From Fluviirhizobium alvei (GTDB taxonomy: Bacteria > Pseudomonadota > Alphaproteobacteria > Rhizobiales > Rhizobiaceae), in the NCBI RefSeq assembly GCF_030551875.1, contig NZ_JAUOZU010000014.1, positions 62,001 to 126,000 of the forward strand: DNA of 64,000 nucleotides. The letters run 5' to 3'. Of the stretch, positions 25,920 through 64,000 are shown one piece after another; position 1 is the stretch's first letter, and each line of letters begins with the position of its first letter. The notes beneath the pieces are model-generated. The model ran no database searches, was not told the DNA's origin, and saw only the letters and a program-made list of their open reading frames with translations. A program made the position numbers and the translations under genes.

Positions 25920-25986
25920 ATGGTCCTCCAGCAATCCATCCCCAACATGTCGCCCGAATGACACCCGGGCGTTGTAGGAGGAGGGT

Positions 25987-46528: not shown

Positions 46529-46529
46529 C

Positions 46530-47993: not shown

Positions 47994-47994
47994 C

Positions 47995-48651
47995 ATGGGC
48001 AATCCGGTGGACAAGGCATCGATCGAAGCCTCCCTCGGCCTTGCCGCGGCAAGGCTCAATGGCAAGGGGCTGCTGAAGCCGGGCGATACGCTTTCCCAGC
48101 GCATTCCCGAGGAAAATGCTTTCGTGACCGTCACGATCCGGGCCGGTCAGGATGTGCCGGATCTCTTCGCCTGGGCGAGCCTGTCGGGCACGCCGCAGGG
48201 CCTTCACCACCGCATCTATGCGGCCCGCCCCGATGTCGGTTCCATTGCAGCCGGTAGCTTCACCTGGATGTCTGCCCTACGTCGGCTCGACATGTCGTTG
48301 CCACCGGTCTTCGATGAACAGGTGCGTCATCTTGGCGTCGAGGGCAAACGCATCGGCATGCGCTCGACCGACGATCTGCAGGCCTCGCTCTTTGCCAATG
48401 GCGCCAATGCCTATTGCCTGGATGATCTGTCGCTCTGTTTCGGCATGGGGCTCGAGCGGTTGCTCCTCAATATCGAGATCCTCGAAAAATGCGCCGAATG
48501 TTTCGTGCTGGCCCAGGCCGCTGCCCGACGCGTCAAGACTATTCCCTGGCTGATCCGGTTCATCGCCAACGGCAGGCTGGTCAAGGACCGCAAGGACGCC
48601 GCCGCCCGCCACCTGCGCGGCGAGCGGTCGATCATGAAGGCGGGCTATTGA
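47995..48651 (+). CDS. Class II aldolase-like protein lacking the metal ligands
   Basis: A 218-residue protein with the overall pattern of class II aldolases: ASLGLAAARLNGKGLLKPGDTLSQRIP at the start, GLHHRIYAARPDVGSI in the centre and a helical end. Where the partner at 45875 has the zinc motif IHTH it reads AAGSF, and where that has SHG it reads NGANAY, so the zinc site is gone. It may be a non-catalytic subunit or a new activity. It is the last gene of the kinase operon. Its final 18 codons are copied again at 49821-49880. Confidence 0.68.
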   Translation: MGNPVDKASIEASLGLAAARLNGKGLLKPGDTLSQRIPEENAFVTVTIRAGQDVPDLFAWASLSGTPQGLHHRIYAARPDVGSIAAGSFTWMSALRRLDMSLPPVFDEQVRHLGVEGKRIGMRSTDDLQASLFANGANAYCLDDLSLCFGMGLERLLLNIEILEKCAECFVLAQAAARRVKTIPWLIRFIANGRLVKDRKDAAARHLRGERSIMKAGY

Positions 48652-49888: not shown

Positions 49889-51331
49889 CTAACCTTTCAC
49901 TGTCAGCAACGGACGGATCTTCGCAACCTTCGCTACCATTCCGGCTTCGACCATCGGCTCCACGACGCTGTCGATCGGCTTGTAGGCATCCGGCGCCTCT
50001 TCGTTGAGGCGCGCCCGGATTTCCGCTGCAATATCCCGCCTCCCGTGCAGGGCCGGGCTGAGCGGATCGACGGGACCGATAACGCGCAGACCACCACCGA
50101 TCATCGCGTTGGATCGCGCTTCCTGACGCGAAAGCCTGCGCCCCGCACCATGCGCCGACGACGACAGGAGATCGCCAGAACCGCATCCTCTGAGCAACCA
50201 TGTGCCGTCCCCCATGGATCCGGGAAGAATGACCGGTTCACCGAGCCAAGAATAGGGACCGGCGCTCATCGCGTCTGCACCTTTCGCCGGGCAGGCTCCC
50301 TTGCGATGGCGTACGACTTCGCCATCCTCCCAAACGGTGTTATGTGGCGCATCGTAGACAAGATGATGATCGATCTGGCGACCCAGGATCCGTGACACCG
50401 CTTCCACCGCTGTGAGACCAAGCAGGAAACGGTTGGCAAAGGCAGCATTGGCCGCATTCGCATGGCCATTCATGAACCGCCGGTAGAGGGCCGGCTGCCG
50501 ATCCTTGGAAACGATCCGCCAATCAAGCCGAACCTTGGAGCTCGTTCGCATTCTCTCCTTTGTCGCCGTCCCGATCCGTTGCCCGAAATCGAGCGAGCCG
50601 GAATGGACGACGACAACAACACTGCCAGATTTGAGCCCGGCCGCCCTGGCGAATGCACCATCCGCGACCTGATCGACGCAACCGAATTCGACGAAATGAT
50701 TTCCGCCGCCAATCGTGCCAAGGATCGCATCGCGCCGATGACGATCATCGATCTGTGTATAGTCGGCAAAGTCGGGATCAATGTCGTCACAGGCGAAGAC
50801 ACCATGGTCTGACTGGCGCTCTAGATCCGCCCAGGCCTGATCGAGATCCAGCTTGGACAGAAGGCCGGTACGGTCATGTCCGAGACGATCGAGAAGGCCC
50901 GGCAAACCATCTCGCAAGATGGCGTAGCGATCATATCCCGTCAAAGCAACATCGCGTCCACCCTGAAAAAAGAGATGGCGGAGTTGATGGTCGAGTTGCG
51001 GATCTTTCAAGTCCTCTTCGGTGATGCCGTGAAGCACGAGCATCCGCATGCCGCACCCGATATCCGAACCGATCAGATGCGGTAGGACGGCTCCTTCCAC
51101 ATCGGCAACGACGCCAACGGGCACCGGTTTGCCCGGATGAAAATCAGGCGTCGTCACAATCGCCTTGATCGTCGCATCGTCTTTCGCGAGAGCATCGGGC
51201 GTCGGAAGGGCGCTGGCAAGGTCCAAAAGCGCATGCGCAAAATGTCGTTCCGGTTCGTCGCGCGCAACGACTGACCGGACGCTGTGCCCGGCGACATCGC
51301 TCGAGCAAAGAATGGATGGTTTGTTGGTCAC
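49889..51331 (-). CDS. rtcB: RtcB-family RNA ligase
   Basis: A protein of about 480 residues with all RtcB motifs: VEGAVLPHLIGSDIGCGMRM with the metal cysteine, GTIGGGNHFVEF, the histidine in VVVHSGSLDFG, NGHANAANAAFANR, HHLVYDAPHN, RKGACPA, and VILPGSMGDGTWLLRG followed by SSSAHGAGR, where the last histidine accepts GMP. RtcB joins RNA 3'-phosphate or cyclic phosphate to 5'-OH ends with GTP. The start is most likely the GTG at 51331, eight bases after ACGGAG. No archease, rtcA or rtcR lies in the window. Confidence 0.9.
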   Translation of the reverse strand: MTNKPSILCSSDVAGHSVRSVVARDEPERHFAHALLDLASALPTPDALAKDDATIKAIVTTPDFHPGKPVPVGVVADVEGAVLPHLIGSDIGCGMRMLVLHGITEEDLKDPQLDHQLRHLFFQGGRDVALTGYDRYAILRDGLPGLLDRLGHDRTGLLSKLDLDQAWADLERQSDHGVFACDDIDPDFADYTQIDDRHRRDAILGTIGGGNHFVEFGCVDQVADGAFARAAGLKSGSVVVVVHSGSLDFGQRIGTATKERMRTSSKVRLDWRIVSKDRQPALYRRFMNGHANAANAAFANRFLLGLTAVEAVSRILGRQIDHHLVYDAPHNTVWEDGEVVRHRKGACPAKGADAMSAGPYSWLGEPVILPGSMGDGTWLLRGCGSGDLLSSSAHGAGRRLSRQEARSNAMIGGGLRVIGPVDPLSPALHGRRDIAAEIRARLNEEAPDAYKPIDSVVEPMVEAGMVAKVAKIRPLLTVKG

Positions 51332-51429
51332 AATATGAACTCCGTAAAAGCCTGGGTTCAGCAGCCGCGGCAATACGGAGTGCAATCGCTATGACATGTC
51401 GTTCGAAGAAATGCAATCTTCAAGAAGAA

Positions 51430-51497: not shown

Positions 51498-52496
51498 TCA
51501 GCCGATGTCGGAGGCTTCGCGTCCGCGGGTGATCTGGGAAATCGTGACCGCCAGGATCAGCGCACCGCCGTTGAAAACATTGGTAACCCAGAGCGGAATG
51601 CCGAGCATGGACAGGCCGGTAATGCCGGTGGCGAGGAAATAGACCGCAACGATGGCGCCCCAGGGGTTGAACCGGCCCGGCTGGATCGTCGTCGCACCGA
51701 GAAACGCTGCGGCAAAGGCCGGCAGCAGGAAGTTGAGACCCGAATAGGGATCGGCCGATCCGAGAACGCCCGCATAGAGAATACCGGCGGCCGAGGCGAG
51801 GACGGCTGACATGACGAGCGCACCGACGCGCACCTTGTCGACCGAAATGCCGTTGAGGCGGGCCACTTCACGACCCCGTCCGACGAACAGCAGCCGGCGG
51901 CCGAGCGGCATGTAATCGAAGATGTACCACATGACCAGCGCCGCTGCGATGGCATAGTAGAACGCATAGGGAATGCCGAACAGCCGGTAGCCGACGGCGG
52001 CCATGATCAGGCTGTTGTCGATGCCGCCGATGGTGGAAGAATTGGTCATCCACTGCACGATGCCGCTCATCAGCGAGGTCGAACCGAGCGTCACCACCAG
52101 CGACGGGACCCGGAAATAGATGATGAAGAGCGAGTGGATCAGACCGACCACCACGCCCATGGCCAGAACGATCAGCAGCACGAGCAGGATCGGCATCTGG
52201 TGCCAGACATTCAGCACGCCGATGGTAGAGGCCGACAGCGTCAGCGTCGCACCCACCGACAGGTCGTAGTCGCCGGCCGTCAGCGGCACGATGATCGCCA
52301 GAGCCAGAAGTGCGGCCGGCGCGTAGGAGGCGAACATGATCGAGAAATTGCCCCAGCTGAAGAACGAATTCGGCATGGCAATGCTGAAGGCCGCGATGAT
52401 CAGGACCCAGACCAGAAGCAGGGCATAACGTTCGAACTGCCGGGTCAGGTTCTTCCGGGAACGGTTCTGGGGAGCGGTCGTGGCAAGGTCTGTCAT
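51498..52496 (-). CDS. Sugar-type ABC transporter permease (RbsC-like)
   Basis: A 332-residue permease with eight to ten hydrophobic segments. The block IIVPLTAGDYDLSVGATLTLSA is the RbsC-family signature, and the coupling loop is VGRGREVARLNGISVDKVRV (EAA-like). The start at 52496 overlaps the ATPase stop as ATGA. It belongs to the class that imports pentoses, hexoses, polyols or autoinducer-2, but members that carry other small molecules are known. Confidence 0.9.
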   Translation of the reverse strand: MTDLATTAPQNRSRKNLTRQFERYALLLVWVLIIAAFSIAMPNSFFSWGNFSIMFASYAPAALLALAIIVPLTAGDYDLSVGATLTLSASTIGVLNVWHQMPILLVLLIVLAMGVVVGLIHSLFIIYFRVPSLVVTLGSTSLMSGIVQWMTNSSTIGGIDNSLIMAAVGYRLFGIPYAFYYAIAAALVMWYIFDYMPLGRRLLFVGRGREVARLNGISVDKVRVGALVMSAVLASAAGILYAGVLGSADPYSGLNFLLPAFAAAFLGATTIQPGRFNPWGAIVAVYFLATGITGLSMLGIPLWVTNVFNGGALILAVTISQITRGREASDIG

Positions 52497-54124
52497 TGTG
52501 CGGCTCGCATCGGTCGGTTTGTCGTGTGATAGGTGGGGGCGGTCGCGTAGCAAGCCTCGGAAATTCCCTCCTTGGTCAGGCTGTCGCCGGTCAGTTCGTG
52601 ACAGATCCGTCCCTTGGCGAAGACGAGAACCCGGTCGCAGATATCGGCCAGCTGCTCGGCTTCCGAGCTCGCGCAGATGATCGACATGCCTTCGGCCGCC
52701 GCCTTGCGCAGGGCGGCGAAAATCTGCTGGCGCGTGCCGACATCGACACCCTGGGTGGGTTCATCGAGAAGCAGGAGCGCCGGCGAACGGTTCATCCAGC
52801 GGGCAATCAGCACCTTCTGGGCATTGCCGCCGGAAAGGGCGGAAAGCTTGAGGTAGGGATCGTTGGGCCGCACCTCGAACTGGGTTCCCAGCACGTGGGC
52901 CTCATCAATCATGGCACGATTGCGCAGGAAGCCGCCGCGGAAGAAACGCCCGACATCGGGCAGGAACATATTGTCGACGATCGGCAGGCTATCGACACCG
53001 CTCGCGCCCTGGCGATCGCCGGGCAGAAGCGCAAAGCCCTTCTCGATCGCGGCCTTCGGCGACAGCGTCACCTGTTCGAACGGCTCGTTCTGTCCAATCG
53101 CGATCGTGCCGCTTGCGGCTGGCTTTGCCCCGAAAGCCAGATAGGGAACCTCTTCATAGCCCGAGCCGATCAGCCCGGTGAGGCCGAGAATTTCGCCCTT
53201 GCCGACATGAAAATCGGATGGCTGCAGCATGCGGCCGGCGAGATTGCGGAATGTAGCAAAGGGCTTGAGGCTTTCCGGATCCCGCTTGGCGTGGCCGCCG
53301 CGGCTGATGCTCTGGCCGACGATCATTTCCACGATCTTCTCGTGGGTCGCATCCTTACGATCGAGTTCGCCGGACTGGATGCCATCGCGCAGCACGGTGA
53401 TCCGGTCGGTAATGTCCATCACCTCGTCGATATCATGCGAGATGAAGATGACGCTGCAACCGGCCTTGGTGATGGATCGCACCAGTTCGAAAAGCTGTGC
53501 GACGCCGCTCGCCGGCAGGAATGGTGTGGGTTCGTCAAGCAGAACCAGACCCGGTTTGCCGGTTACGGCACGGGCCGCCTCGATATCCTCGAAGGCGCGG
53601 ACAATAGCAAGCAGCGCCCGCTGCACGGGGCTCAGCCGGTCCACACGCTCATGCGGATCGATGTCGAGACCGAAACGCTCAAGCGCATGACGGGCCGCCT
53701 TCTCCTCCTCAACCCAGTTGATGAAGGCGCGACCACCATGGGTCAGTTGCACGACACGCAGGTTTTCAAGCACCGTCAGCGATGGCACCAGACCGAGATT
53801 CTGGTGCACGAAGGCCATGCCGAGACGTCTCGCATCGCCTGCCCGCACTGGAAGTGAAACCTTTTCGCCGTTGAAGAACAGCGAACCGCCGTCATCCGGC
53901 GCGTGAAAGCCGGCCAAAATCTTGACGAGCGTGGATTTTCCCGAGCCGTTCTTGCCGAGCAGGCCATGAACTTCGCCCGGCATCACATCGAAGGAGACGT
54001 TGCGCAGCGCTTTGGCTCCGCCGAACGACTTGGATATGTTCTTCACCGACAGGACCGGGAGCGCTTGTGACGCTCCCGGGTTGATCGCCGGATCATGCCC
54101 TGTCTGACCCGACTGCAATGCCAT
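52493..54124 (-). CDS. Sugar-type ABC transporter ATPase, two domains (RbsA-like)
   Basis: A 543-residue double ATPase. The first domain (about 25-265) has Walker A GKNGSGKST, a degenerate signature DRLSPVQRALLAIVRA and Walker B LVLLDEPTPFL. The second (about 285-520) lacks a proper Walker A (LTGLIGSGYEEVPYL) but keeps the signature LSGGNAQKVLIARW and LLLLDEPTQGVDVG, the usual asymmetry of RbsA proteins. It overlaps the binding-protein gene by one base and the permease by four. Confidence 0.92.
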   Translation of the reverse strand: MALQSGQTGHDPAINPGASQALPVLSVKNISKSFGGAKALRNVSFDVMPGEVHGLLGKNGSGKSTLVKILAGFHAPDDGGSLFFNGEKVSLPVRAGDARRLGMAFVHQNLGLVPSLTVLENLRVVQLTHGGRAFINWVEEEKAARHALERFGLDIDPHERVDRLSPVQRALLAIVRAFEDIEAARAVTGKPGLVLLDEPTPFLPASGVAQLFELVRSITKAGCSVIFISHDIDEVMDITDRITVLRDGIQSGELDRKDATHEKIVEMIVGQSISRGGHAKRDPESLKPFATFRNLAGRMLQPSDFHVGKGEILGLTGLIGSGYEEVPYLAFGAKPAASGTIAIGQNEPFEQVTLSPKAAIEKGFALLPGDRQGASGVDSLPIVDNMFLPDVGRFFRGGFLRNRAMIDEAHVLGTQFEVRPNDPYLKLSALSGGNAQKVLIARWMNRSPALLLLDEPTQGVDVGTRQQIFAALRKAAAEGMSIICASSEAEQLADICDRVLVFAKGRICHELTGDSLTKEGISEACYATAPTYHTTNRPMRAAQ

Positions 54125-55242
54125 TATTCGATGCCCCAGAGCTTGCGGAAACCAGCCTTGTAGGCGTCACCGTAGCCGGTGTCGAACTGGGCCGGGGTGC
54201 CGGCTTCATGCGCGTTGTTCTTGTCGAAGATGTAGAACGGAACGTTGAGCGCCGTCGGGCTCTTCATGCCGCAGGCATCGCGCAGATGGCCGTCGATCGT
54301 GGCGTAGGCGATCCAGTCGAGGCTCTCGCCGATATCCATGTCGGCCAGGCCCTGCTGGATGTAATCGAGCACGAAGGGCGTACCATTGAAGGTTGCAAGC
54401 TTCACTTCGCCGGTCTTGCCGGCCAGGCGCAATGCCGGGACGACGAACTGCGACATCGAGTCATAGATCGGGATCACGACATTGATCTCCGGATTGGCCT
54501 GTACGGCAGACTGGACGGCCGGCTGGATCTTGGTGCCCCATTCGGTCACGCCGACATTGATTTCCTGCACGATCTTGCAGTTCGGGCAGTTTTCGGCAAG
54601 CTGTTTCTTGAAGTTGGCAACCAGCGGAATGGTCGGCGGCACTTCGTTGGAGACGACGATGGCAATGTTTGCCTTGCCTTCGGTCGCAACGGTCGACCAG
54701 TCAGCCAGGATGGTGCCGATTTCGCCGAAGCCGATGGTCAGCGACGAAGAGACGACCGGGTTCTGCTCGAAGCTCGGATCGTAGAAATGCGAGGTCATGA
54801 CCTTGACGCCGGCTTCCTTGGCAGCCTTGAGCTGCGGCTCGATGGTGCCGGGATCGATACCCGAAATCAAATCGATGATGTCATACTTCTCGCGGATCGC
54901 CATTTCGACGCCCTGAACCCACTGGCTCGGCTGACCCTGGTTTTCCCATTCGCGCACTTCGAGACCGACTTCGGCGCCGGCGGTCTTCATGCGGTCGATG
55001 ATGCCCTTGAGGAACGGGTTGCCCGAATTGTTCGGGATCGAAAGCATCTTCTTGCCCTTGGCGCAGGCCATGGCATCGAAAGGCTCGCCCGGAGCAACGA
55101 ATTCCGGCTTGGCCTGATATTTTGCCAGGTTGGCCTTGGCACGCGCCAGTCCGTCTGCGGCCTCATCGGCATGGGACGGGCCCGCCAGGCACAGAAGAGC
55201 GGCAAAAGAAGTGATAGATGCGAGCAGGACGCGTTTGTTCAT
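54124..55242 (-). CDS. ABC transporter substrate-binding protein (sugar-binding, LacI-like fold)
   Basis: A 372-residue periplasmic protein. The signal peptide runs MNKRVLLASITSF to SHADEA (cleavage near 26). The mature protein has the type 1 periplasmic fold: KKMLSIPNNSGNPFLKGI, IDLISGIDPGTIEPQLKAAK, VIPIYDSMSQF. Three or four cysteines (MACAKG, ENCPNCKI, DACGM) are unusual for such a protein. GGGAGACTGAC precedes the ATG at 55242. The operator-rich region upstream and the LacI regulator point to repression without substrate. Confidence 0.9.
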   Translation of the reverse strand: MNKRVLLASITSFAALLCLAGPSHADEAADGLARAKANLAKYQAKPEFVAPGEPFDAMACAKGKKMLSIPNNSGNPFLKGIIDRMKTAGAEVGLEVREWENQGQPSQWVQGVEMAIREKYDIIDLISGIDPGTIEPQLKAAKEAGVKVMTSHFYDPSFEQNPVVSSSLTIGFGEIGTILADWSTVATEGKANIAIVVSNEVPPTIPLVANFKKQLAENCPNCKIVQEINVGVTEWGTKIQPAVQSAVQANPEINVVIPIYDSMSQFVVPALRLAGKTGEVKLATFNGTPFVLDYIQQGLADMDIGESLDWIAYATIDGHLRDACGMKSPTALNVPFYIFDKNNAHEAGTPAQFDTGYGDAYKAGFRKLWGIE

Positions 55243-55298
55243 GTCAGTCTCCCAGACCACATTGCGCGGTCTCACCCCCTCGGCGGACCGCTTCTATG

Positions 55299-55312
55299 AA
55301 TGCGTATGCATT
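55299..55312. promoter_or_regulatory. Candidate LacI-type operator before the ABC transporter operon
   Basis: AATGCGTATGCATT is a palindrome (arms AATGC and GCATT, four-base centre) 57 bases upstream of the binding-protein ATG. Twelve of 13 bases, ATGCGTATGCATT, recur as ATGCGTATTCATT at 60552-60564. Confidence 0.6.
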
Positions 55313-55356
55313 GTTTGCGTAAAGTCGTCGGCAAGTCAATCGTCGAAAATCGAAAT

Positions 55357-55374
55357 CTTGCATAGGAATGCAAG
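55357..55374. promoter_or_regulatory. Palindrome in the transporter / lacI divergent region
   Basis: CTTGCAT-AGGA-ATGCAAG has perfect 7-bp arms. It lies between the two neighbouring operators of the 274-base divergent gap. It shares the ATGC core with them but differs at the flanks, so it may be a second-class site. Confidence 0.5.
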
Positions 55375-55477
55375 AAAACGCAGCTGCGGTGGCTTGTCTG
55401 CCCACAGATTGCGCGCAATGAACCTATTGAAACCTGAGGGTTTGGGCGCTACTCTGCAGGCGATCCACCGAAAAAAT

Positions 55478-55489
55478 GAATGCGCATTC
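55478..55489. promoter_or_regulatory. Candidate LacI-type operator before the lacI-like gene
   Basis: GAATGCGCATTC is a perfect 12-bp palindrome 28 bases upstream of the regulator's ATG, well placed for self-repression. It is the most symmetric member of the GAATGCGYATTC set. Confidence 0.6.
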
Positions 55490-55516
55490 GAAAGTCAGGA
55501 TCGGAAAGTAGCAGCA

Positions 55517-56596
55517 ATGACGCGGAACACGACCAGAACAACCTCTTTCGATGTCGCGGCCCTGGCCGGTGTCTCGCAATCGGCCGTATCGCGGGCCTTC
55601 ACGCCCGGATCCAGCATTGCGGAGGAAACGCGCCAGAAAGTACTCGAAGCTGCCAAGAAGCTCAACTACGTTCCCAACTCGATTGCCAGTTCGCTCACCA
55701 CAAAGCGCACGAACATCGTGGCGCTCATTCTCGGCAATCTTGGCAACCCTTTCTACGTCCATGTTCTGCACACCTTCTCCCAGCGCCTGCAGGAGCAAGG
55801 CAGGCAGGTTCTGATCTTTACGGTCGATCCGGGGGCGGAAAGCGATGAGGCGATCCTGCATCTCTTGAAATACCAGGTGGATGGCGTGATTCTCACCGCC
55901 GCGCAGCTTTCGACGCGCATGACCAGCATTTGCCATGACCGCGGCATCCCGATCGTGCTGTTCAACCGCTACATTCCCGGCTCGGATGCATCCGGCGTTC
56001 GCTGCGACAATGCCGGCGGCGGGCGCCTGATCGCCGAAGCGTTCCTGGCCGCCGGGGCGCGCAGTTTCCTGATGATCACCGGCGATCCCAAGGGCACGAC
56101 GAGCCAGGATCGCGCTCGCGGTTTCGTCGAACGCCTGCTCGAGGAAGGCGTGCGCCGCAGCGACATTGCCGAAATCGAGGGCAGTTCCTCCTATGAGGGC
56201 GCCTATAGTGCAGTCCTGCGCCATTTCGGCGACAAGAACCGCACGCGGCCGGAAGCGATCTTCGGCATCAACGACATCATGGCCATGGGCGCCATGGATG
56301 CGCTGCGGTTCCGGCTGGGCCTGAAAATCCCCGAGGACCTGATGCTTGCCGGGTTTGACGATATTCCCGAAGGCCGCCGAGCACCCTACCAGTTGACGAC
56401 GGTGCGCCAGCCGATCAACCAGATGGTCGATGAGGCTCTGGACATGCTGCATCTCGATGAACCGAGCCTGCCGATCGAACGGGGCCTCGATCACCCGATC
56501 GCCGGCAGATTGATCTGGCGCGGCACGATCCCCGTGCCACCGGCCTATCAATGGCCGGCAGGCACCACGCGCGAGGCCGAACCGAACGCGGAATGA
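55517..56596 (+). CDS. LacI-family transcription repressor
   Basis: A 359-residue regulator. The LacI helix-turn-helix (about 9-56) reads TSFDVAALAGVSQSAVSRAF with hinge PNSIASSLTTKRTN. The sugar-binding-like domain includes VALILGNLGNPFYVHVLHTF, FNRYIPGSD and GINDIMAMGAMDALRF, and the end is LAGFDDIPEGRRAPYQLTTVRQP. The ATG at 55517 directly follows the palindrome region; the open frame further upstream is not part of the protein. It is divergent from the ABC transporter and convergent with the hydantoinase genes. Shared palindromes suggest that it controls all three operons. Confidence 0.92.
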   Translation: MTRNTTRTTSFDVAALAGVSQSAVSRAFTPGSSIAEETRQKVLEAAKKLNYVPNSIASSLTTKRTNIVALILGNLGNPFYVHVLHTFSQRLQEQGRQVLIFTVDPGAESDEAILHLLKYQVDGVILTAAQLSTRMTSICHDRGIPIVLFNRYIPGSDASGVRCDNAGGGRLIAEAFLAAGARSFLMITGDPKGTTSQDRARGFVERLLEEGVRRSDIAEIEGSSSYEGAYSAVLRHFGDKNRTRPEAIFGINDIMAMGAMDALRFRLGLKIPEDLMLAGFDDIPEGRRAPYQLTTVRQPINQMVDEALDMLHLDEPSLPIERGLDHPIAGRLIWRGTIPVPPAYQWPAGTTREAEPNAE

Positions 56597-56623
56597 ACAG
56601 GATTTCATTGTTCCGGATATGAA

Positions 56624-56645
56624 AAGGGGCCCTTTCGGGCCCCTT
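56624..56645. terminator. Bidirectional terminator between lacI and hyuB
   Basis: AAGGGGCCC (56624-56632) pairs with GGGCCCCTT (56637-56645) around TTTC. It lies 28 bases after the lacI stop and just before the end of the convergent hyuB. Confidence 0.82.
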
Positions 56646-56648
56646 CCT

Positions 56649-58436
56649 TCATTCTGCAGCCTGACGTTCCGGCGGCGTGAAGCCGAAGTCGAACGGCGGC
56701 GGCGCACCGCGCACCTCGCGAACCTTCGCCCGCAGCGCATCCGTTGCCGCGACATCGACCTGATTGTCGTCGGTCAGCACCACACCGTAGCCATCCTTGG
56801 CCTGCTCGCGCGAGACCAGCCCGTAGCGCACGTCGCGCGCCACGATCTCGGCGGAACGATCGAGCGGATCGCCCCAGCCACCGGAGCCCGCCGTCTTGAA
56901 GACGATGCGGTCGCCCGGATTGACCTTGAGATTGTCGACCTTGGAGGGGATGCGGGTCGGCTCGTCCGAACCGGCCTTGATCATCCACTTGCTGGAGGTG
57001 CCGCCATGCAGACCGCCATTGATGCCCCAGGGCGGCACCACTTCGCGGTCGTCATGGATGGAAACCTGGCCGGGCTCGAGAACGCGATAGACCTTCTCGA
57101 TACCCGCACCGCCGCGATGCAGACCAGGACCGCCCGAATCCTGGATCGGCAGGTAACGCTCGACCAGAACCGGATAGTAGTTTTCGATATATTCGATCGG
57201 GGTTGCCGAGAAGAGCGGCCACCAGGCGTGACCGTCGAACCCGTCGCCCTTCGGACGACCCGGCACGCCACCGAACAGCAGTTCCATGAGCTGGAAATAC
57301 TTCTTGTCCTTGTCGTGACCGGAGAAGATGAAGTGCGGGCTGGTGCCGTAGCCGGCCGCCATCGAAAGCTGCGGCACGAACTTGCCGAGCGCGCCGGCCT
57401 GGCAATCGAAGAAGCGGGTGTGGGTGTTGAGACGGTTCGAAAGGGCCGCCGGGAAGCGCGGGTTGAGCAGGCTTCCTTCCGGCAGCACGATCTCGAACAG
57501 GTCGTAGAACCCTTCGTTGAACAGCACCGACGGATCGAAGGACATGATCATGTAGACGCCGAAGAACAGTTTGCACAGCCCTTCGTGGATGTGGAAGTTG
57601 ATCGGACCTTCCGCCTGGTCGTCCGTGCCGGTGAAGTCGAACACGGCGATATCGCCACGACGCGAGATCGTCAGCGTCATGCGGAACGGACCATTGCCGA
57701 GACCGTCATCATCGACATAGTCGGTGAAGCTGACCGGCTCTTCCGGAATATACTTCCGGATGACGACGCGCATGGCTTCGCGGGTGCGATCGAGCAGCAT
57801 GTCGCAGGCGGTCATGTAGGTCTCGCGGCCGAAACGGTCGCAGAGTTCCTTCACGCGCGTTGCGGCGGTGCGGCAGCCGGCGATCAGCGCCATCAGGTCG
57901 GCGCGGTTCATGTCCGGCGTGCGGGTGTTGTTCAACATGATGTCGAGAACACCTTCGTTGAGCACGCCCTTGGAATAGATCCGGACCGGCGGAATGCGCA
58001 GCCCCTCTTCCCAGATCGTGCGGGCGTTCGCCGGCATCGAACCCGGCACGGTGCCGCCGACATCGACCATGTGGCCGAAGATCGAGGAGAAGCCGACATG
58101 GACCCCTTCATGGAAGATCGGCATCATCACGCACCAGTCGTTGTTGTGCGAGATCGAGCCCTTGCAGGCATAGGGATCGTTCCAGACGAAGATATCGCCT
58201 TCGTTGATGTCGCCCTGGAATTTCTCCACGACGGACGGGATGTAGGAGCCGAACTGGCCGACGATCATCTGGCCGCGATGATTGCAGATCATCGGGAATT
58301 CGTCGTGCTGTTCGCGAATGACCGGCGACAGCGAAATGCGGACGACGACGCCGTCCATTTCGAAGCGGGCATTCTTGAGGGCGTTTTCGATGATATCGAG
58401 TGTAATAGGATCGACTTTGACGGTCATGGCGCTCAC
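56649..58436 (-). CDS. hyuB: Hydantoinase/oxoprolinase subunit B (HyuB)
   Basis: A 595-residue HyuB-type subunit. It has the N-terminal DPITLDIIENALKNARFEMD block, the family stretches NDPYACKGSISHNNDW and GHMVDVGGTVPGSM, and the C-terminal RDVRYGLVSREQAKDGYGVVL. With HyuA it makes an ATP-dependent enzyme that opens five-membered lactams: hydantoins, N-methylhydantoin or 5-oxoproline. It can start at a GTG (58436) that overlaps the hyuA stop as GTGA, or at an ATG (58427). It is the second gene of the operon and ends at the terminator shared with lacI. Confidence 0.9.
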   Translation of the reverse strand: MSAMTVKVDPITLDIIENALKNARFEMDGVVVRISLSPVIREQHDEFPMICNHRGQMIVGQFGSYIPSVVEKFQGDINEGDIFVWNDPYACKGSISHNNDWCVMMPIFHEGVHVGFSSIFGHMVDVGGTVPGSMPANARTIWEEGLRIPPVRIYSKGVLNEGVLDIMLNNTRTPDMNRADLMALIAGCRTAATRVKELCDRFGRETYMTACDMLLDRTREAMRVVIRKYIPEEPVSFTDYVDDDGLGNGPFRMTLTISRRGDIAVFDFTGTDDQAEGPINFHIHEGLCKLFFGVYMIMSFDPSVLFNEGFYDLFEIVLPEGSLLNPRFPAALSNRLNTHTRFFDCQAGALGKFVPQLSMAAGYGTSPHFIFSGHDKDKKYFQLMELLFGGVPGRPKGDGFDGHAWWPLFSATPIEYIENYYPVLVERYLPIQDSGGPGLHRGGAGIEKVYRVLEPGQVSIHDDREVVPPWGINGGLHGGTSSKWMIKAGSDEPTRIPSKVDNLKVNPGDRIVFKTAGSGGWGDPLDRSAEIVARDVRYGLVSREQAKDGYGVVLTDDNQVDVAATDALRAKVREVRGAPPPFDFGFTPPERQAAE

Positions 58437-60490
58437 TTTCCCTTCGAAACGGGCCAGATCAGGATATTGCCGTGCTTGTCGATCTCGGCATAGTGAGCCG
58501 GGAGCAGCACGGTGGTGGTGTCATATTGCCGAATGATCGCCGGGCCTTCCACGCGCGCGCCGACCCCGAGCTTGGCCCGGTCATAGTGATGGGTATCGAC
58601 CCATTTGCCATCGAAATAGGCGGGTCTGGTTTCGATGATCGCATCCTTGACGTCACTGCCAGAAGACACGAGATGAACCTCTTCGACCGGCGGCGTCGCG
58701 CCGCGGGCGACGACGCGCAGTGCCACCAGTTCCACCGGAACATGGAAGCGAACGCCATAGAGCCGTTCGTGGATGTCGTGGAAATCGGCCAGCGTCTGGG
58801 CAATGTCGCCCTTGGCATGCACATCCGCCGCGGAAACCGGCACGGCCACTTCGAAGCCCTGCTGCTCGTAACGAAGGTCGAGCGAGAAGGAGATCGAAGC
58901 GTCAGCCTCGCTGACTTCCTGCTCCTTCAGCCATTCCTGCGCCTTGGCTTCGAGTTCGTCGAACCGCGACCAGATTTCGGCCGGATTGAGACCCACCGTC
59001 GAGCGGATATAGGTCTGGACGAATTCGTTGCGGAAATCGGCTTCGAGGAAGCCGAGTGCGCAGAGCACGCCCGGATTGGTCGGCACGAGAACCGGATAGC
59101 AGCCGAGCAGTTCGGCCATGGCATTGGCATGCAACGGGCCGGCGCCGCCGAAAGCAACGATGCCGAATTCACGCGGATCGAGACCGCGCTGGACGGTGAT
59201 GACGCGGAGCGCACCGAGCATGACTTCGTTGGCGATGTCGATGATGCCCTTTGCGGCATCTTCCGGCGTCAGACCGAGCTGGCTGCCGACACGGGCCACC
59301 GCTTCGCGGGCGCCGTCCACATCAAGCGTCATATCGCCGCCGAGAAGCACCGGTGGCAGATAGCCGAGCACCACATTGGCGTCGGAGACAGCGGGTTCGG
59401 TGCCGCCGCGGCCATAGGAAACCGGACCGGGACGCGCACCTGCCGAACGGGGGCCGACGCGGAGCGAACCGGTCAGTTCCGACACATCGGCGATCGAGCC
59501 GCCACCTGCACCGACCGAACGGACATCGAGCGTCGGGACCTTGGCCGGGAACATGCCGACTTCGGTCGAACGCGAGATCGTTGCTTCGCCATCGATGATC
59601 ACCGCCACGTCGGTCGAGGTGCCGCCCATGTCGAAAGCGAGCAACTTGGAAAAGCCCGAGCGACGTGACAGCATGACTGTCGAGGTCACGCCACCGGCCG
59701 GACCGGAAAGAACCGTGTGCACCGGCCGCTCGGAAGCAGCGGCAGCACTCATCAGACCGCCGTCGGAACGCACGATATGCAGGCGGGCCGTGACGCCGTC
59801 CGCAGCCAGACGATCTTCGATTCGCGACAGGTAGCGCTTCATGATCGGACGGACATAATCGTTCATCACCGTGGTGATGGCACGGTCATATTCGCGGAAT
59901 TCCGGCAGGATGTCGGACGACAGCGATACCGGAATCTGCGGGAAGCGGGCCGCCACGATATCGCGGAGCGCGCGTTCGTGGGCCGGGTTTGCATAGGAAT
60001 GCATGAGCGAGATCGTCAGCGCCTCGATGCCCGACGAGCAGAGGTCGTCGATCAGCGCGGTCGCCTTGGCAAGGTCGAGTTCCTTGACCACTTCGCCGCG
60101 TGCATTCATGCGCTCGGGGATGCCGCGCGTATCGGCAAGCGAGGCAAGCGGATCGGGCTTGTCCATGTTGATCCAGCCAAACAGCGGGCCGGGCGTCCAG
60201 GCCTTGGCGAGATGCAGCGTATATTCGAACCCTTCGCTGACCAGGAGGCCGACGCGCGCGCCCTTGCCTTCCAGCACCGCATTGGTGGCAACCGTGGTGC
60301 CATGCAGGATCAGATCGAGATCGGAGGGCGAGATCCCCGCCTTCTCACAGATCAGCTTGACGCCAGCGGCAACGCCGATCGACTGGTCTTCGGGCGTTGA
60401 AGGCGTCTTGGCCTGGAACGTACGTCCCGTTTTTTCATCGTGCAACAAAAGGTCGGTGAACGTTCCACCGACATCGACACCGAGTCTCAT
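58433..60490 (-). CDS. hyuA: Hydantoinase/oxoprolinase subunit A (HyuA)
   Basis: A 685-residue HyuA-type subunit with an actin-like ATPase fold. The phosphate-1 site is MRLGVDVGGTFTDLLL. ILHGTTVATNAVLEGKGARV follows, then the phosphate-2 site LAFDMGGTSTDVAVI (about 285-299), SVGAGGGSIADV and FGGAGPLHANAMAELLG. The start at 60490 is chosen because homologues begin exactly MRLGVDVGGTFTD and GGGGATTT lies upstream. Substrates of the family include hydantoins, 5-oxoproline and acetone (as part of carboxylases). The acetone type is unlikely here because no third subunit is present. Confidence 0.92.
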   Translation of the reverse strand: MRLGVDVGGTFTDLLLHDEKTGRTFQAKTPSTPEDQSIGVAAGVKLICEKAGISPSDLDLILHGTTVATNAVLEGKGARVGLLVSEGFEYTLHLAKAWTPGPLFGWINMDKPDPLASLADTRGIPERMNARGEVVKELDLAKATALIDDLCSSGIEALTISLMHSYANPAHERALRDIVAARFPQIPVSLSSDILPEFREYDRAITTVMNDYVRPIMKRYLSRIEDRLAADGVTARLHIVRSDGGLMSAAAASERPVHTVLSGPAGGVTSTVMLSRRSGFSKLLAFDMGGTSTDVAVIIDGEATISRSTEVGMFPAKVPTLDVRSVGAGGGSIADVSELTGSLRVGPRSAGARPGPVSYGRGGTEPAVSDANVVLGYLPPVLLGGDMTLDVDGAREAVARVGSQLGLTPEDAAKGIIDIANEVMLGALRVITVQRGLDPREFGIVAFGGAGPLHANAMAELLGCYPVLVPTNPGVLCALGFLEADFRNEFVQTYIRSTVGLNPAEIWSRFDELEAKAQEWLKEQEVSEADASISFSLDLRYEQQGFEVAVPVSAADVHAKGDIAQTLADFHDIHERLYGVRFHVPVELVALRVVARGATPPVEEVHLVSSGSDVKDAIIETRPAYFDGKWVDTHHYDRAKLGVGARVEGPAIIRQYDTTTVLLPAHYAEIDKHGNILIWPVSKGK

Positions 60491-60539
60491 ATCAAATCCC
60501 CTACACGCATCGTTAGCTCCTTTTTCTTCGCCGCATCCA

Positions 60540-60564
60540 AATGAGTATTGCATGCGTATTCATT
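60540..60564. promoter_or_regulatory. Candidate LacI-type operator between hyuAB and leuCD-like operons
   Basis: The 25-base site starts AATGAGTA and ends GTATTCATT, with GCATGC in its middle. It contains ATGCGTATTCATT, almost identical to the site before the ABC transporter. It is 50-74 bases before hyuA and about 125 before the dehydratase gene, so one site could control both operons. Confidence 0.55.
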
Positions 60565-60687
60565 TCAGCATAGATTCGGTTCCAGTGGTTCTGCAAGAGG
60601 AAAGATGACTGGAGCCTCCAGTTTTTCATTCTTCACCGCATAGCCACCCAATGCCTCCCTCAATGGCCACCGGACATCGCCTACGCA

Positions 60688-62097
60688 ATGAACGCAAAAA
60701 CGCTATACGACAAGGTTTGGCAAAGCCACGTTATCAAGGATTTTGATGACGGTACGTCGCTTCTCTACATCGATCGCCATCTGGTCCAGGAAGTTTCGAG
60801 CCCGCAGGCCTTTGCCGGGCTTGCCGCCCAGAACCGCCGTTTTCGCCGGCCTGATGCGCATATTGCCGTGGCCGACCACGCGGTTCCCACCCGTTTGCGC
60901 CATCTCGGGCTGCCGGACGGACTGGCGGCGCGCCAGGTTGCCCGCCTCAAGGAAAACTGTCAGTCTTTCGGCATCGGCTATATCGACATCAACGATCGCC
61001 GGCATGGTATCGTCCATGTCATCGGCCCCGAACTGGGCTTCACCCTGCCGGGCGCAACTCTCGTCTGCGGCGACAGTCACACATCCACGCATGGTGCCTT
61101 CGGAGCCATCGCCTTCGGCATCGGCGCGAGCGAGTGTGAATGCGTATTCGCGACGCAGGTTCTGCGGCAGAAGAAACAGCGCACCATGCGCGTCAATCTT
61201 CTGGGTGAACTGCATCCTGGCGTCACCGTAAAGGACATCATCCTAGGTCTGATCGCCAAGATCGGCACCAATGGCGGCGTCGGTTATGCAATCGAATATG
61301 CAGGGCCCGTGATCGCATCGCTGTCGATGGAAGCCCGGATGACGCTCTGCAATATGTCGATCGAGGCGGGAAGCCGTGTCGGCATGATCGCCCCGGATGA
61401 AACGACCATCGCTTATGTGCGTGGCCGGCCGCTCGCGCCGGAGGGCGCGTTGCTCGCCAAGGCAGAGGCCTATTGGCGGACGCTTGCCTCCGACGCGGAT
61501 GCCAAATTCGATCGCGAGGTCGATCTCGACGTCTCTTCGCTTTCGCCGCAGGTTTCCTGGGGCACTAACCCGGGCGAGACCGCGCCCGTGAGCGGTGCGG
61601 TTCCGGATCCTTCGGTCGAAACCGACCCGGTCAAGCGGCAGAAGATGCAGCGCAGCCTCGCCTATATGGATCTGACGCCCGGCACGCCTTTCGAAGAGAT
61701 CCCAATCGATCGGGTCTTCATTGGCTCCTGCACAAATGGCCGCATCGAGGATCTGAGGCTGGCGGCGTCCGTGGTCAAGGGCCGCAAGGTCGCCGACAAT
61801 GTCGTGGCGATCGTGGTTCCCGGTTCGGCCACCGTGCGGCTTCAGGCCGAGGCGGAAGGTCTTGACCGGCTGTTTCGCGATGCCGGTTTCGAGTGGCGCG
61901 ATTCGGGCTGTTCGATGTGCGTGGCGATGAATGACGACCGGCTCAAGCCCGGCGAGCGCTGCGCCTCCACCTCCAACCGCAATTTCGAAGGTCGCCAGGG
62001 TCTCGGGGGCCGCACGCATCTGATGAGCCCGATCATGGCGGCGGCAGCGGCCGTGACCGGGCATCTCACCGATGTCCGCAAGCTGGAAGCGATCTGA
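60688..62097 (+). CDS. Aconitase-family hydratase large subunit (LeuC-like)
   Basis: A 469-residue protein resembling 3-isopropylmalate dehydratase large subunit. The active-site block is [20 protein letters not shown]. The 4Fe-4S cysteines are in FIGSCTNGR and [11 protein letters not shown], and NRNFEGRQG is conserved. It is the right length and complete. Nearby genes for amide hydrolysis and for an isocitrate-lyase-family enzyme argue against a leucine role and for hydration of another unsaturated diacid, as dimethylmaleate hydratase does in nicotinate fermentation. No good ribosome site precedes the ATG, so its start is moderately certain. Confidence 0.88.
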
Positions 62098-62099
62098 TC

Positions 62100-62753
62100 A
62101 TGGAAAAGTTCACAACCCTGACCTCGGTCGCAGCCCCCCTGCCCGAAGCGGATGTCGACACCGACATCATCTTCCCGGCCCGTTTCCTGCTGCTTCTCGA
62201 CAAGGCCGGACTCGGCAAGCACCTCTTCCATGAGCGCAGACATGCTGCGGACGGTTCGGCCACCGATTTCGTTCTCAACCGGGCACCGTTCGACCAGGCG
62301 AAAATTCTTGTTGCCGATGCCAATTTCGGTTCCGGCTCAAGCCGCGAACAGGCGGTCTGGTCGCTTACCGATTTCGGTATCCGCTGCGTCATCGCGCCCA
62401 GCTTCGGCGAGATCTTTTTCGCCAACTGCTTCAAGAATGGCGTTCTGCCGATTGTCGTCACCGGCGATACCCATGCCAATGTGATGGCGGCAGCGCGCAG
62501 CGGCGAGCCTTTCACCGTCGATCTCGAAGCGCAAACCGTCCTTCTGCCGAACGGGCCTTCGATCCGGTTCGATATCGATCCGTGGCGCAAGCGCGCCCTG
62601 CTGGAAGGTCTCGACGAGATCGGCACCATCCTTGCTGATGACGAGACGGATATCGCTGCGTTCGAACAGCGCCATCGCACCCAGCAGCCCTGGCTGTTTC
62701 TCGATGACGGCCGCCTTGAAAAATTTCTCGCACAGGGAGAACGGAATGACTGA
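62100..62753 (+). CDS. Aconitase-family hydratase small subunit (LeuD-like)
   Basis: A 217-residue swivel-domain subunit. DVDTDIIFPARFLL is the N-terminal block (LeuD usually has DTDQIIP). The substrate-site loop is NFGSGSSREQAVWSL, followed by APSFGEIFFANCFKNGVLPI. It begins two bases after the large-subunit stop. The D-T-D-I-I-F-P variant and the replacements around it fit a LeuD relative with altered specificity. Confidence 0.9.
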   Translation: MEKFTTLTSVAAPLPEADVDTDIIFPARFLLLLDKAGLGKHLFHERRHAADGSATDFVLNRAPFDQAKILVADANFGSGSSREQAVWSLTDFGIRCVIAPSFGEIFFANCFKNGVLPIVVTGDTHANVMAAARSGEPFTVDLEAQTVLLPNGPSIRFDIDPWRKRALLEGLDEIGTILADDETDIAAFEQRHRTQQPWLFLDDGRLEKFLAQGERND

Positions 62754-63384
62754 TCAGGATCTTTCCAGCAATTACCAGGGCGCCTTCGGCAAGCGCATCG
62801 GCTTCGGCAAGAAACCGGTGCTGCTGATGATCGATTTCGTCGAAGCCTATTTCGATCGTGGCTGCGCCCTGTTTGCCGATGTCGAGGATGCTCTCGCCTC
62901 CGCCCTCAGGCTTCAGGCGGCGGCCAGGGCTGCCGATGTGCCGGTCATCTACACCAACGTCGTCTATAACAAATCGGTCCTCAACGGCGGCCGCTTCTAT
63001 CAGAAGTCGATGACCCTCCATAATTTCGTCGAGGGCAGCCCGATGGGCGCCTGGCCGAAAGGCCTCGTGCCGCGCGAAGACGAGCTGGTGATTTCCAAGC
63101 AGTATCCATCGGCCTTTTTCGGCACCTCGCTTGCGTCAACACTCACCACGTTGGGCATCGATACGGTCATCCACACCGGCGTTTCGACATCAGGCTGCGT
63201 GCGCGCCACCTGTGTCGATTGCTGTTCGCACGGCTTCATCCCGATCATTGTCCGCGATGCGGTCGGCGATCGTCATCCCGCACCGCACGAGGCCAATCTC
63301 TTCGATATGGACGCCAAGTACGGCGATGTCGTGCGCGAAGCGGAAGTCATTGAATATCTCAAGAATATAGGAAAAGTTTCATGA
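62746..63384 (+). CDS. Isochorismatase-family cysteine amidohydrolase
   Basis: A 212-residue cysteine hydrolase. The catalytic aspartate is in VLLMIDFVEAYFD (about 30). The lysine is in ELVISKQYPSAFFGTSL, and the nucleophilic cysteine is in HTGVSTSGCVRATCVDC (about 153), with the usual cis-peptide before it. Relatives are N-carbamoylsarcosine amidase, maleamate amidohydrolase and other amidases. It overlaps the LeuD-like gene by eight bases and the following gene by four, so it belongs in the same pathway. An amide product of the hydantoinase is its likely substrate. Confidence 0.87.
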   Translation: MTDQDLSSNYQGAFGKRIGFGKKPVLLMIDFVEAYFDRGCALFADVEDALASALRLQAAARAADVPVIYTNVVYNKSVLNGGRFYQKSMTLHNFVEGSPMGAWPKGLVPREDELVISKQYPSAFFGTSLASTLTTLGIDTVIHTGVSTSGCVRATCVDCCSHGFIPIIVRDAVGDRHPAPHEANLFDMDAKYGDVVREAEVIEYLKNIGKVS

Positions 63385-64000
63385 GCAAGCGCAGCCTCAA
63401 GGCAGCCCTGGCCTCGGGTCAGTTCGTCGTCGCACCGGGAATCCATGACATGATCACCGCGGTGGTCTCCAACAAGGTGGGCTTCGATTTCGTCTATGCA
63501 TCCGGCTACTGGATGACGGCTTCGGCCTACGGCCTGCCGGATGCCGGCATCGCCACCTATTCGCAGATGCTCGACCGCGTCGCGACCTTGTGCCGGACGG
63601 TGAATGCCGGCGTAATCGCCGATGCCGATACCGGTTATGGCGGGCTTCTTAATGTCCACCACACGGTGCGCGGCTATGAAGAGGCCGGCGTTGCCGCCAT
63701 CCAGATCGAGGACCAGGAATTCCCCAAGAAATGCGGCCACACGCCCTTCAAGCGCGTGGTGCCGATGATCGACATGGTCGAGAAGATCAAGGTGGCGGTG
63801 GAAGCACGCCGCAACCCCGAAACGCTGATCATTGCCCGCACCGACGCCCGGCAGCCGGAAGGTTATGAGGCGGCCCTGAAGCGCGGTCTCGCCTATGGTG
63901 AAGCCGGTGCCGACATTGTCTTCCTCGAGGCGTTGGAAAGCGAAGAGGAAATGCGCGATGCCTGCCGCCGGGTGCCGCAGCCGATGATGGCAAACATGGC
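63381..64000 (+). CDS. Isocitrate lyase / PEP mutase-family carbon-carbon lyase (cut by window end)
   Basis: The first 206 residues of an (alpha/beta)8 barrel lyase. DADTGYGG binds magnesium. IEDQEFPKKCGH includes the catalytic cysteine of the KKCGH motif, marking it as a lyase rather than a mutase. IIARTDARQPEGYEAAL follows. Relatives are 2-methylisocitrate lyase, dimethylmalate lyase and oxaloacetate decarboxylase. Its ATG overlaps the amidohydrolase stop (ATGA). It probably cleaves the hydroxy-diacid made by the LeuCD-like hydratase into a 2-oxo acid and a second acid. Confidence 0.88.
   Translation, partial: MSKRSLKAALASGQFVVAPGIHDMITAVVSNKVGFDFVYASGYWMTASAYGLPDAGIATYSQMLDRVATLCRTVNAGVIADADTGYGGLLNVHHTVRGYEEAGVAAIQIEDQEFPKKCGHTPFKRVVPMIDMVEKIKVAVEARRNPETLIIARTDARQPEGYEAALKRGLAYGEAGADIVFLEALESEEEMRDACRRVPQPMMANM

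What the first reader, a model, noticed from the sequence alone, without database searches (positions are those of the whole stretch)
51498..64000. Candidate undescribed pathway: cyclic imide or hydantoin opened, de-amidated, hydrated and cleaved
Enzymes seen: ATP-dependent hydantoinase HyuA/HyuB, isochorismatase-type amidase, aconitase-type hydratase (LeuCD-like) and an isocitrate-lyase-family lyase with KKCGH. The last four genes overlap or nearly touch. Established knowledge: dimethylmaleate hydratase plus dimethylmalate lyase perform hydration and cleavage in Eubacterium nicotinate fermentation, and maleamate amidohydrolase is isochorismatase-like. Inference: ring opening gives a maleamate-like amide, then an (alkyl)maleate, an (alkyl)malate and finally a 2-oxo acid plus a carboxylic acid. 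Substituted maleimides (for example from tetrapyrrole oxidation) or alkyl hydantoins would fit. I know of no pathway described with exactly this gene set under one LacI regulator with a Rbs-type importer.
Basis: partly seen in the sequence, partly recalled or inferred. Interest (0 to 1): 0.78.

Follow-up and report, generated by a model that had tools for sequence, protein, structure and literature searches.

The report
LacI-controlled cyclic imide-type catabolic regulon
A bacterium carries a jointly controlled set of genes that probably imports a small nitrogen-containing ring compound, opens the ring, strips off its nitrogen, adds water and cuts the carbon chain; the gene set recurs in other bacteria, yet the compound it feeds on is not known.

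Summary
The window's LeuCD is not the leucine enzyme: the genome has second LeuC and LeuD copies, and the window's LeuC falls in a separate clade. A LacI-type palindrome close to TGAATGCGCATTCA lies in both divergent control regions here and in 9 of 9 orthologous loci with both regions in hand. The genome's one perfect match to TGAATRCGYATTCA lies elsewhere, upstream of an Fe-alcohol dehydrogenase whose relatives sit inside these operons in other species. So this is one regulon. Of 63 long loci with the same isochorismatase, 33 have the lyase, 24 LeuCD, 28 HyuA; control windows 0 of 20. Some clusters have a RutA-like monooxygenase or a flavin hydroxylase set instead of HyuAB. A conjugated cyclic imide opened to a maleamate-type half-amide, then maleate-type and malate-type acids, then cleavage, best fits all parts. 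Substrate and every reaction are inferred; a hydantoin/ureide route stays possible.

The parts
51498..52553 (-). permease of Rbs-type ABC importer
   Evidence: Pfam BPD_transp_2 1.2e-26
52493..54124 (-). ATPase with two ABC domains, same importer
   Evidence: Pfam ABC_tran 1.5e-36, two stretches
54124..55275 (-). periplasmic sugar-type binding protein
   Evidence: Pfam Peripla_BP_4 2e-24
55297..55310 (.). putative LacI operator TGAATGCGTATGCA between binding protein and lacI
   Evidence: conserved in orthologous loci
55477..55490 (.). putative LacI operator TGAATGCGCATTCG between binding protein and lacI
55517..56596 (+). LacI-family regulator
   Evidence: Pfam LacI 5.2e-13 plus Peripla_BP_3 3.8e-26
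56649..58436 (-). HyuB, ATP-dependent hydantoinase/oxoprolinase beta
   Evidence: Pfam Hydantoinase_B 7.6e-150; metal-site residues D45, H97, D100, H122 (counted from the GTG at 58436) align with D41, H99, D102, H124 of the 581-aa chain 6yra_B (ligands from PMC8453981)
58433..60490 (-). HyuA, ATP-dependent hydantoinase/oxoprolinase alpha
   Evidence: Pfam Hydantoinase_A 4e-96; best solved relative N-methylhydantoinase 7hk5
60549..60562 (.). putative LacI operator TGCATGCGTATTCA between hyuA and leuC
60688..62097 (+). LeuC-like large subunit of an aconitase-type hydratase, catabolic clade
   Evidence: Pfam Aconitase 5.6e-169; tree
61137..61150 (.). fourth operator-like palindrome, inside leuC
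   Evidence: with at most 2 mismatches also in leuC of L041, L076, L096, L097 and L099; may only reflect conserved protein sequence
62100..62753 (+). LeuD-like small subunit with altered substrate loop
   Evidence: Pfam Aconitase_C 7.5e-30; loop comparison
62746..63384 (+). isochorismatase-type amidohydrolase, D30/K118/C151 kept
   Evidence: Pfam Isochorismatase 1.6e-34; alignment
63381..64000 (+). PEP-mutase/isocitrate-lyase family lyase with KKCGH, cut by the window end (complete in L003:3381-4262)
   Evidence: Pfam PEP_mutase 7.5e-39; model and fold search on the L096 orthologue

Best explanation
The region is one LacI-controlled catabolic regulon on a repABC replicon. A Rbs-type importer brings in a small cyclic amide; HyuAB spends ATP to open the ring; the isochorismatase-type amidohydrolase removes ammonia from the resulting half-amide; LeuCD hydrates the resulting maleate-type diacid (or isomerises the malate-type acid); the PEP-mutase-family lyase cuts the substituted malate into a 2-oxo acid and a carboxylic acid. 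Dehydrogenases (HAD-like, HisD-like, SDR, and an Fe-ADH encoded elsewhere) oxidise a hydroxylated side chain or product. The ring is most likely a conjugated (maleimide-type) cyclic imide, because that is a substrate class on which HyuAB, RutA-type flavin chemistry, a maleamate-type amidase and a maleate-type hydratase could all converge. Shown: gene content, distinct LeuC clade, conserved operator, recurrence. Inferred: every reaction, their order, the sign of regulation and the substrate.
For: Genes and families. Second LeuC and LeuD on another contig; window LeuC in a 24-row clade apart from the 23-row clade with the second copy, SH-aLRT supports 95 and 100; LeuD loop DTDIIFPARFLLLLDKAGLG / GSSREQAV against [20 protein letters not shown] / GSSREHAP in the genome's second LeuD. 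Operator: 4 places with at most 2 mismatches in the window against a simulated mean of 0.475, all in this cluster; both control regions hit in 9 of 9 orthologous loci with both regions in hand, and in L234; in 8 whole genomes carrying the cluster or its parts 23 of 36 places and 10 of 12 perfect places lie at this locus, reversed control 0. Trans members: the perfect C15 site lies 260 bp upstream of an Fe-ADH that is the genome's best match (59%, next 38%) to the Fe-ADH of the L101 operon; in Devosia a site sits directly upstream of a distant hisD-sdr pair. Recurrence: of 63 long isochorismatase loci 33 have the lyase, 24 LeuC and LeuD, 28 HyuA, 6 RutA-like, 13 the flavin monooxygenase; 0 of 20 control windows have any of these. 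Catalytic residues kept in HyuB, isochorismatase and lyase.
Against: No substrate is shown. Best solved relatives of HyuAB and the isochorismatase are hydantoin/ureide enzymes. 30 of 63 long isochorismatase loci lack the lyase, 39 lack LeuC, and 6 show none of the tabulated ring-opening or downstream families, so the isochorismatase is not tied to one pathway. The RutA-like protein of one group scores above NCBI's cut-off for true RutA, which could mean uracil-like substrates there, and most loci of that group lack LeuCD and lyase. Operator-like sites also occur without any regulon gene (G028 C36, G000 C8, G022 C15), and with 3 mismatches allowed the window count is no more than chance.
Confidence: 0.52

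Rival explanations
1. Hydantoin or other cyclic ureide route: HyuAB opens a 5-substituted hydantoin and the isochorismatase acts as an N-carbamoyl hydrolase, giving an amino acid or enamine that becomes a 2-oxo acid; LeuCD and the lyase work on a diacid formed later.
For: Best solved relatives are N-methylhydantoinase and N-carbamoylsarcosine amidohydrolase. Some related loci hold an Asp/Glu/hydantoin-racemase-family gene, a PuuE-type allantoinase relative and a true-RutA-like protein. Next to the importer in G028 lies a gene that by eye reads like an FAD amine oxidase.
Against: Leaves LeuCD without an obvious substrate. Among the recurrent neighbour families that I named by profile none is an aminotransferase, amino-acid dehydrogenase, creatininase or sarcosine enzyme. 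The isochorismatase shares the PHEANLFDM stretch with NicF, while 1nba lacks it, though the tree does not place it with either.
Confidence: 0.27
2. A sugar-like or nucleoside-like compound carrying a cyclic imide or ureide (C-glycoside type) is the substrate: the ring is handled by HyuAB and the isochorismatase, the polyol part by HisD-like, SDR, HAD-like and Fe-ADH enzymes.
For: Rbs-type importer and LacI; HAD-like, HisD-like and SDR genes in the operon and HisD-sdr after HyuAB in L234; Fe-ADH by shared operator.
Against: hisD is found in only 4 of the 63 long isochorismatase loci. Importers of this class and LacI proteins are not limited to sugars (recalled).
Confidence: 0.12
3. Two unrelated pathways (ring opening; alkylmalate breakdown) that merely share a regulator or lie side by side.
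For: LeuCD plus lyase occur without HyuAB and isochorismatase in the stretches seen of Skermanella, Azospirillum and Methylobacterium plasmids.
Against: Operator in both control regions in 9 of 9 loci, and the shared gene set in 13 loci from several genera.
Confidence: 0.09

Closest known systems
Nicotinate/nicotine lower pathway (NicF or Ami maleamate amidohydrolase, maleate isomerase); pathway recalled
   Same: isochorismatase-family amidase; relatives' loci also hold a flavin monooxygenase like PnpA/HspB and a maleate-isomerase-type protein
   Different: ring opened by HyuAB here; diacid hydrated by LeuCD and cut by a lyase instead of being isomerised to fumarate
Nicotinate fermentation of Eubacterium barkeri (dimethylmaleate hydratase DmdAB, dimethylmalate lyase); recalled
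   Same: hydration of a maleate-type acid and lyase cleavage, same superfamilies
   Different: LeuCD is the bacterial LeuCD type (LeuC 744 bits to PRK05478; LeuD 230 bits to PRK01641 against 79 for the LeuD/DmdB family); ABC-import regulon; no orthology shown
Creatinine/N-methylhydantoin route (N-methylhydantoinase, N-carbamoylsarcosine amidohydrolase)
   Same: best solved relatives of HyuAB and the amidohydrolase
   Different: no sarcosine or creatinine enzyme among the recurrent neighbour families named; LeuCD and lyase in the same regulon
Caprolactamase CapAB (PMC8453981, passages)
   Same: same ATP-dependent family, metal ligands kept
   Different: NCBIfam CapA 517 and CapB 244 bits, cut-off 1000 each
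Petal death protein / methylisocitrate lyase
   Same: fold and active-site motifs; SGY and GG(K/R)TP as in petal death protein
   Different: 36% and 31-34% identity in the fold alignment of the L096 orthologue; no methylcitrate genes seen among the neighbouring frames

Membership tests
leucine biosynthesis LeuCD | groups with biosynthetic LeuC and is the genome's only copy | tested here: not met
   separate clade, second copies on C45
leucine biosynthesis LeuCD | LeuD substrate loop IIPK.YLK and GSSREHAP | tested here: not met
   IIFPARFLLLL and GSSREQAV
DmdAB dimethylmaleate hydratase | LeuD/DmdB-type small subunit | tested here: not met
   469+217 aa, bacterial LeuCD models score far higher; no DmdAB sequence was at hand for a direct comparison
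ATP-dependent hydantoinase/oxoprolinase HyuAB | HyuA and HyuB domains with metal-site residues | tested here: met
ATP-dependent hydantoinase/oxoprolinase HyuAB | ATP-dependent opening of a given ring | not testable with these tools
   needs purified enzyme
maleamate amidohydrolase (NicF/Ami) | isochorismatase domain with Asp-Lys-Cys triad | tested here: met
   D30, K118, C151 invariant in 14 sequences; triad roles recalled
maleamate amidohydrolase (NicF/Ami) | groups with NicF rather than with N-carbamoylsarcosine amidohydrolase | tested here: inconclusive
   long branches, no resolution
PEP-mutase/ICL lyases | catalytic Cys in K(K/R)CGH | tested here: met
   KKCGH in the window; 60 of 60 homologues in hand have K(K/R)CGH; role of the Cys recalled
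dimethylmalate lyase / oxaloacetate hydrolase | closest relative, Ser after TP | tested here: not met
   TPI, nearest 4iqd and 1zlp; Ser marker recalled; the E. barkeri enzyme itself was not at hand
LacI regulon | conserved palindrome with central CG at each control region | tested here: met
   binding itself not tested

The most novel reading that the evidence does not exclude
A widespread, undescribed bacterial route for substituted maleimides with a hydroxylated side chain (for example imides left from oxidised chlorophyll, haem or bilins, or a C-glycosyl imide), built around a core of maleamate-type amidase and substituted-malate lyase into which three unrelated ring-opening systems (HyuAB, RutA-like monooxygenase with amidases, flavin hydroxylase set) have been plugged.
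Probability: 0.2. Interest if true: 0.85.

Novelty: new variant of a known kind. Interest (0 to 1): 0.62.

Why it matters
If right, it names a regulon, a regulator and a DNA operator for a catabolic route whose core recurs in Rhizobiales, Rhodobacterales, sphingomonads and gammaproteobacteria, and whose genes annotation now files as leucine biosynthesis, hydantoinase and methylisocitrate lyase. It would correct those labels, give a LacI sensor by which the substrate can be found, and could answer what soil and marine bacteria do with natural cyclic imides.

Tried and rejected
Methylcitrate cycle: a search of the genome with the lyase finds only itself and one partial match (38% over 97 residues), but no prpC or prpD was seen among the neighbouring frames (by eye), so rejected as the main reading. 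Leucine biosynthesis spare copy: rejected. Vitamin B6 degradation was considered because the HAD-like protein also matches FHMPC dehydrogenase (157 bits, cut-off 500) and one related locus has a weak 4-pyridoxolactonase match; the HAD-like protein's better match is PRK06129 (364 bits, cut-off 347), so rejected. True uracil Rut pathway for the window: no RutA-type gene in the cluster. Pyridine or nicotinate degradation for the window: no flavin hydroxylase or maleate isomerase in the cluster, though they occur in related loci. Isochorismatase tree: no resolution between NicF and N-carbamoylsarcosine amidohydrolase. Rfam at gathering thresholds: nothing in the window. Paper searches (listings and abstract starts only) found no paper on this gene set; only PMC8453981 was looked into, by passages; PMC3370604 was not held. 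Subscription papers are mostly not held, so absence from print is not shown. VIA-align was not available, so Foldseek was used. Viral contigs and metagenomes were not searched.
Full report
1. What is there. The window is G000:C6:62001-126000 of a 5.2 Mb assembly in 46 contigs. Layout: permease, ATPase and binding protein on the minus strand (51498-55275); LacI on plus (55517-56596); HyuB and HyuA on minus (56649-60490); LeuC, LeuD, isochorismatase (ISO) and lyase (LYA) on plus (60688 to the end). The last four are 2 bp apart or overlap by 8 and 4 bp. The operon does not stop at the window end: L003 (C6:122001-141000) completes LYA (293 aa, to L003:4262) and adds a 3-hydroxyacyl-CoA/carnitine-dehydrogenase-type protein (HAD; NCBIfam PRK06129 364 bits, cut-off 347), a HisD homologue (TIGR00069 439 bits, cut-off 244) and an SDR; next comes, on the other strand, a gene that by eye reads like a TetR regulator. 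The contig carries repA, repB and repC genes (Pfam AAA_31, RepB, RP-C), so this is a secondary replicon.

2. LeuCD is not the leucine enzyme. The genome has a second LeuC (C45:348393, 61% identical) and a second LeuD (C45:339994, 49%). I built a quick tree of 56 LeuC rows, the window's and 55 of the 67 homologues in hand. The window's protein lies in a 24-row clade (SH-aLRT 95) that holds LeuCs of isochorismatase loci plus L037 and L042; the genome's second copy lies in a 23-row clade (100) of copies from other genomes of the order. LeuCs of L107, L114, L116, L123, L134 and one of L172's two, all isochorismatase loci, fall outside the 24-row clade, as do those of L038-L040. The LeuD substrate loop differs: DTDIIFPARFLLLLDKAGLG and GSSREQAV in the window, [20 protein letters not shown] and GSSREHAP in the genome's second copy.

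3. One regulon. Both divergent control regions contain a palindrome close to TGAATGCGCATTCA: 55297 and 55477 (binding protein/lacI) and 60549 (hyuA/leuC), with a fourth inside leuC at 61137. With up to 3 mismatches the window count (4) is no more than chance (mean 4.9); with up to 2 it is 4 against a simulated mean of 0.475, maximum 2 in 40 simulations, and all four lie in this cluster. In 9 orthologous loci where both control regions were in hand (L041, L076, L077, L078, L079, L080, L096, L097, L099) both hold a site with at most 2 mismatches; in L079 both are perfect. L098, L100, L122, L037, L042 and L090, also scanned, show one region only or weaker sites; L234, which extends L090's region, has both. 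In eight whole genomes chosen because they carry the cluster or its parts, TGAATRCGYATTCA with up to 1 mismatch gives 36 places, 23 of them at this locus, and 10 of the 12 perfect ones; the reversed pattern gives 0. With TGMATRCGYATKCA and no mismatch in ten genomes or records, 12 of 15 places lie at the locus; two of the ten (G003, G027) have none. In G028, where the importer and hyuA-leuC lie 17 kb apart, both keep a perfect site.

4. Trans members found by the operator. The one perfect match to TGAATRCGYATTCA in the window's genome (C15:23541-23554) lies 260 bp upstream of an iron-containing alcohol dehydrogenase. The Fe-ADH genes inside or beside isochorismatase/LeuCD/lyase operons elsewhere (L037, L077, L090, L098, L101, L106, L114, L161) are its homologues at 54-60% (a search of the loci in hand only), and a search of the window's genome with the L101 protein returns this gene first (59%; five others at 31-39%). 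In Devosia (G302) a second pair of sites far from the main locus lies directly upstream of a hisD (72%) and sdr (58%) pair and near another HisD-like gene (44%); that pair has its own LacI-like gene (42%), so it may answer to that one. In L234 hisD and sdr follow hyuA-hyuB directly. Sites with no regulon gene seen beside them: C8:4609 (G000), three on C36 (G028) and C15:15253 (G022). The other extra sites in G028 (C6:36750), G258 and G292 were not looked at.

5. Recurrence. ISO homologues at E <= 1e-40 occur in 38 of 301 genomes searched, the window's own included. Of these 80, 63 are at least 15 kb long: 33 have LYA, 24 LeuC and LeuD (18 of them with LYA), 28 HyuA, 6 a RutA-like protein, 13 the flavin monooxygenase; 43 have one or more of the three ring openers, 47 have LYA or the HMG-CoA-lyase-like protein, and 6 show none of the tabulated families. 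Twenty control windows of 20 kb from relatives gave 0 with LYA, LeuC, HyuA, RutA-like or flavin monooxygenase, one with a HAD-like and one with an amidase match; the controls come from fewer taxa than the 63. The window's gene set (HyuA 70% or more, LeuC 65% or more, ISO and LYA 60% or more) occurs in 13 loci: L041, L076-L080, L096-L100, L115 and L122; the named hosts are Rhizobium, Devosia, a Bosea MAG, Puniceibacterium and an uncultured Erythrobacter.

6. Ring openers that stand in for one another. Beside the same ISO family stand (a) HyuAB; (b) a RutA-like FMN monooxygenase, mostly with amidases and a related importer (L083-L089, L146, L147, L162, L166, L171), scoring above NCBI's RutA cut-off in L083 (622 against 498) but below it in L100 (340); LYA is present in L086, L087, L162 and L171 of these and absent from the other eight; (c) a flavin monooxygenase whose nearest solved relatives are PnpA and HspB, with maleate-isomerase/arylmalonate-decarboxylase-type proteins and a PuuE-type protein. 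Some loci hold two openers. A fourth layout in sphingomonads and gammaproteobacteria has HyuAB with a class III CoA-transferase and an HMG-CoA-lyase-type protein, mostly without LeuCD and LYA. A conjugated cyclic imide is a substrate class that (a) and (b) could both open to a maleamate-type half-amide, for which ISO's relative NicF is the known hydrolase, and whose product is what LeuCD-type enzymes hydrate; this convergence is inference from enzyme chemistry that I recall, not a test.

7. The enzymes. HyuB keeps the four metal ligands of caprolactamase: in the alignment with the 581-aa chain 6yra_B, which I take to be CapB from its length, D45, H97, D100 and H122 stand at D41, H99, D102 and H124 (ligands from PMC8453981, passages); IREQ.D is found in 33 of 36 HyuB homologues in hand. 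ISO keeps D30, K118 and C151, invariant in 14 sequences. Its best solved relative is N-carbamoylsarcosine amidohydrolase 26st (162 bits) before NicF 3ot4 (119 bits; printed as putative isochorismatase, the name NicF is recalled), and a tree does not settle which it belongs with. LYA keeps KKCGH; a model of the L096 orthologue (mean pLDDT 91.5) is nearest to 4iqd (42% identity), petal death protein (36%) and methylisocitrate lyases (31-34%). LYA shares the SGY and GG(K/R)TP motifs with petal death protein and lacks the serine after TP seen in 3fa3. That petal death protein prefers dialkylmalates, and that the serine marks oxaloacetate hydrolases, are recalled.

8. Verdict. A real, coherent and conserved catabolic regulon for which the open papers searched gave no description (listings only).

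Noticed in passing
window 9700-28635: A run of minus-strand genes that read like uptake-hydrogenase and Hyp maturation genes; the one at 26153-27595 is a nickel-dependent hydrogenase large subunit by Pfam, the rest named by eye.
   Followed up: partly
window 44206-48651: A second small cluster before the importer: FGGY kinase, class II aldolase, class III aminotransferase and a protein with no Pfam match.
   Followed up: partly
window 49889-51385: RtcB-family gene next to the importer.
   Followed up: no
L003:13865-17635: repABC genes on the same contig, so the cluster lies on a plasmid or second chromosome.
   Followed up: yes
L003:9545-12655: 1036-aa protein with many glycine-aspartate-rich repeats downstream of the cluster (by eye).
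   Followed up: no
L105, L113, L145, L157, L158, L168: Loci with HyuAB, the same isochorismatase, a class III CoA-transferase and an HMG-CoA-lyase-type protein, several with a TonB receptor: a possible alternative to LeuCD plus lyase.
   Followed up: partly
L038, L039, L040: LeuCD plus lyase without HyuAB or isochorismatase in the stretches seen of Skermanella, Azospirillum and Methylobacterium plasmids, with other importers; leuC and leuD are annotated as leucine biosynthesis.
   Followed up: partly
L233:12457-16689: Devosia locus with the operator, a second HisD-like gene and a protein that by eye reads like a MetE-type methyltransferase.
   Followed up: no
L217:550-6050: Next to the importer in G028: genes that by eye read like an FAD amine oxidase, a PLP sulfur-amino-acid enzyme and a Rieske oxygenase.
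   Followed up: no
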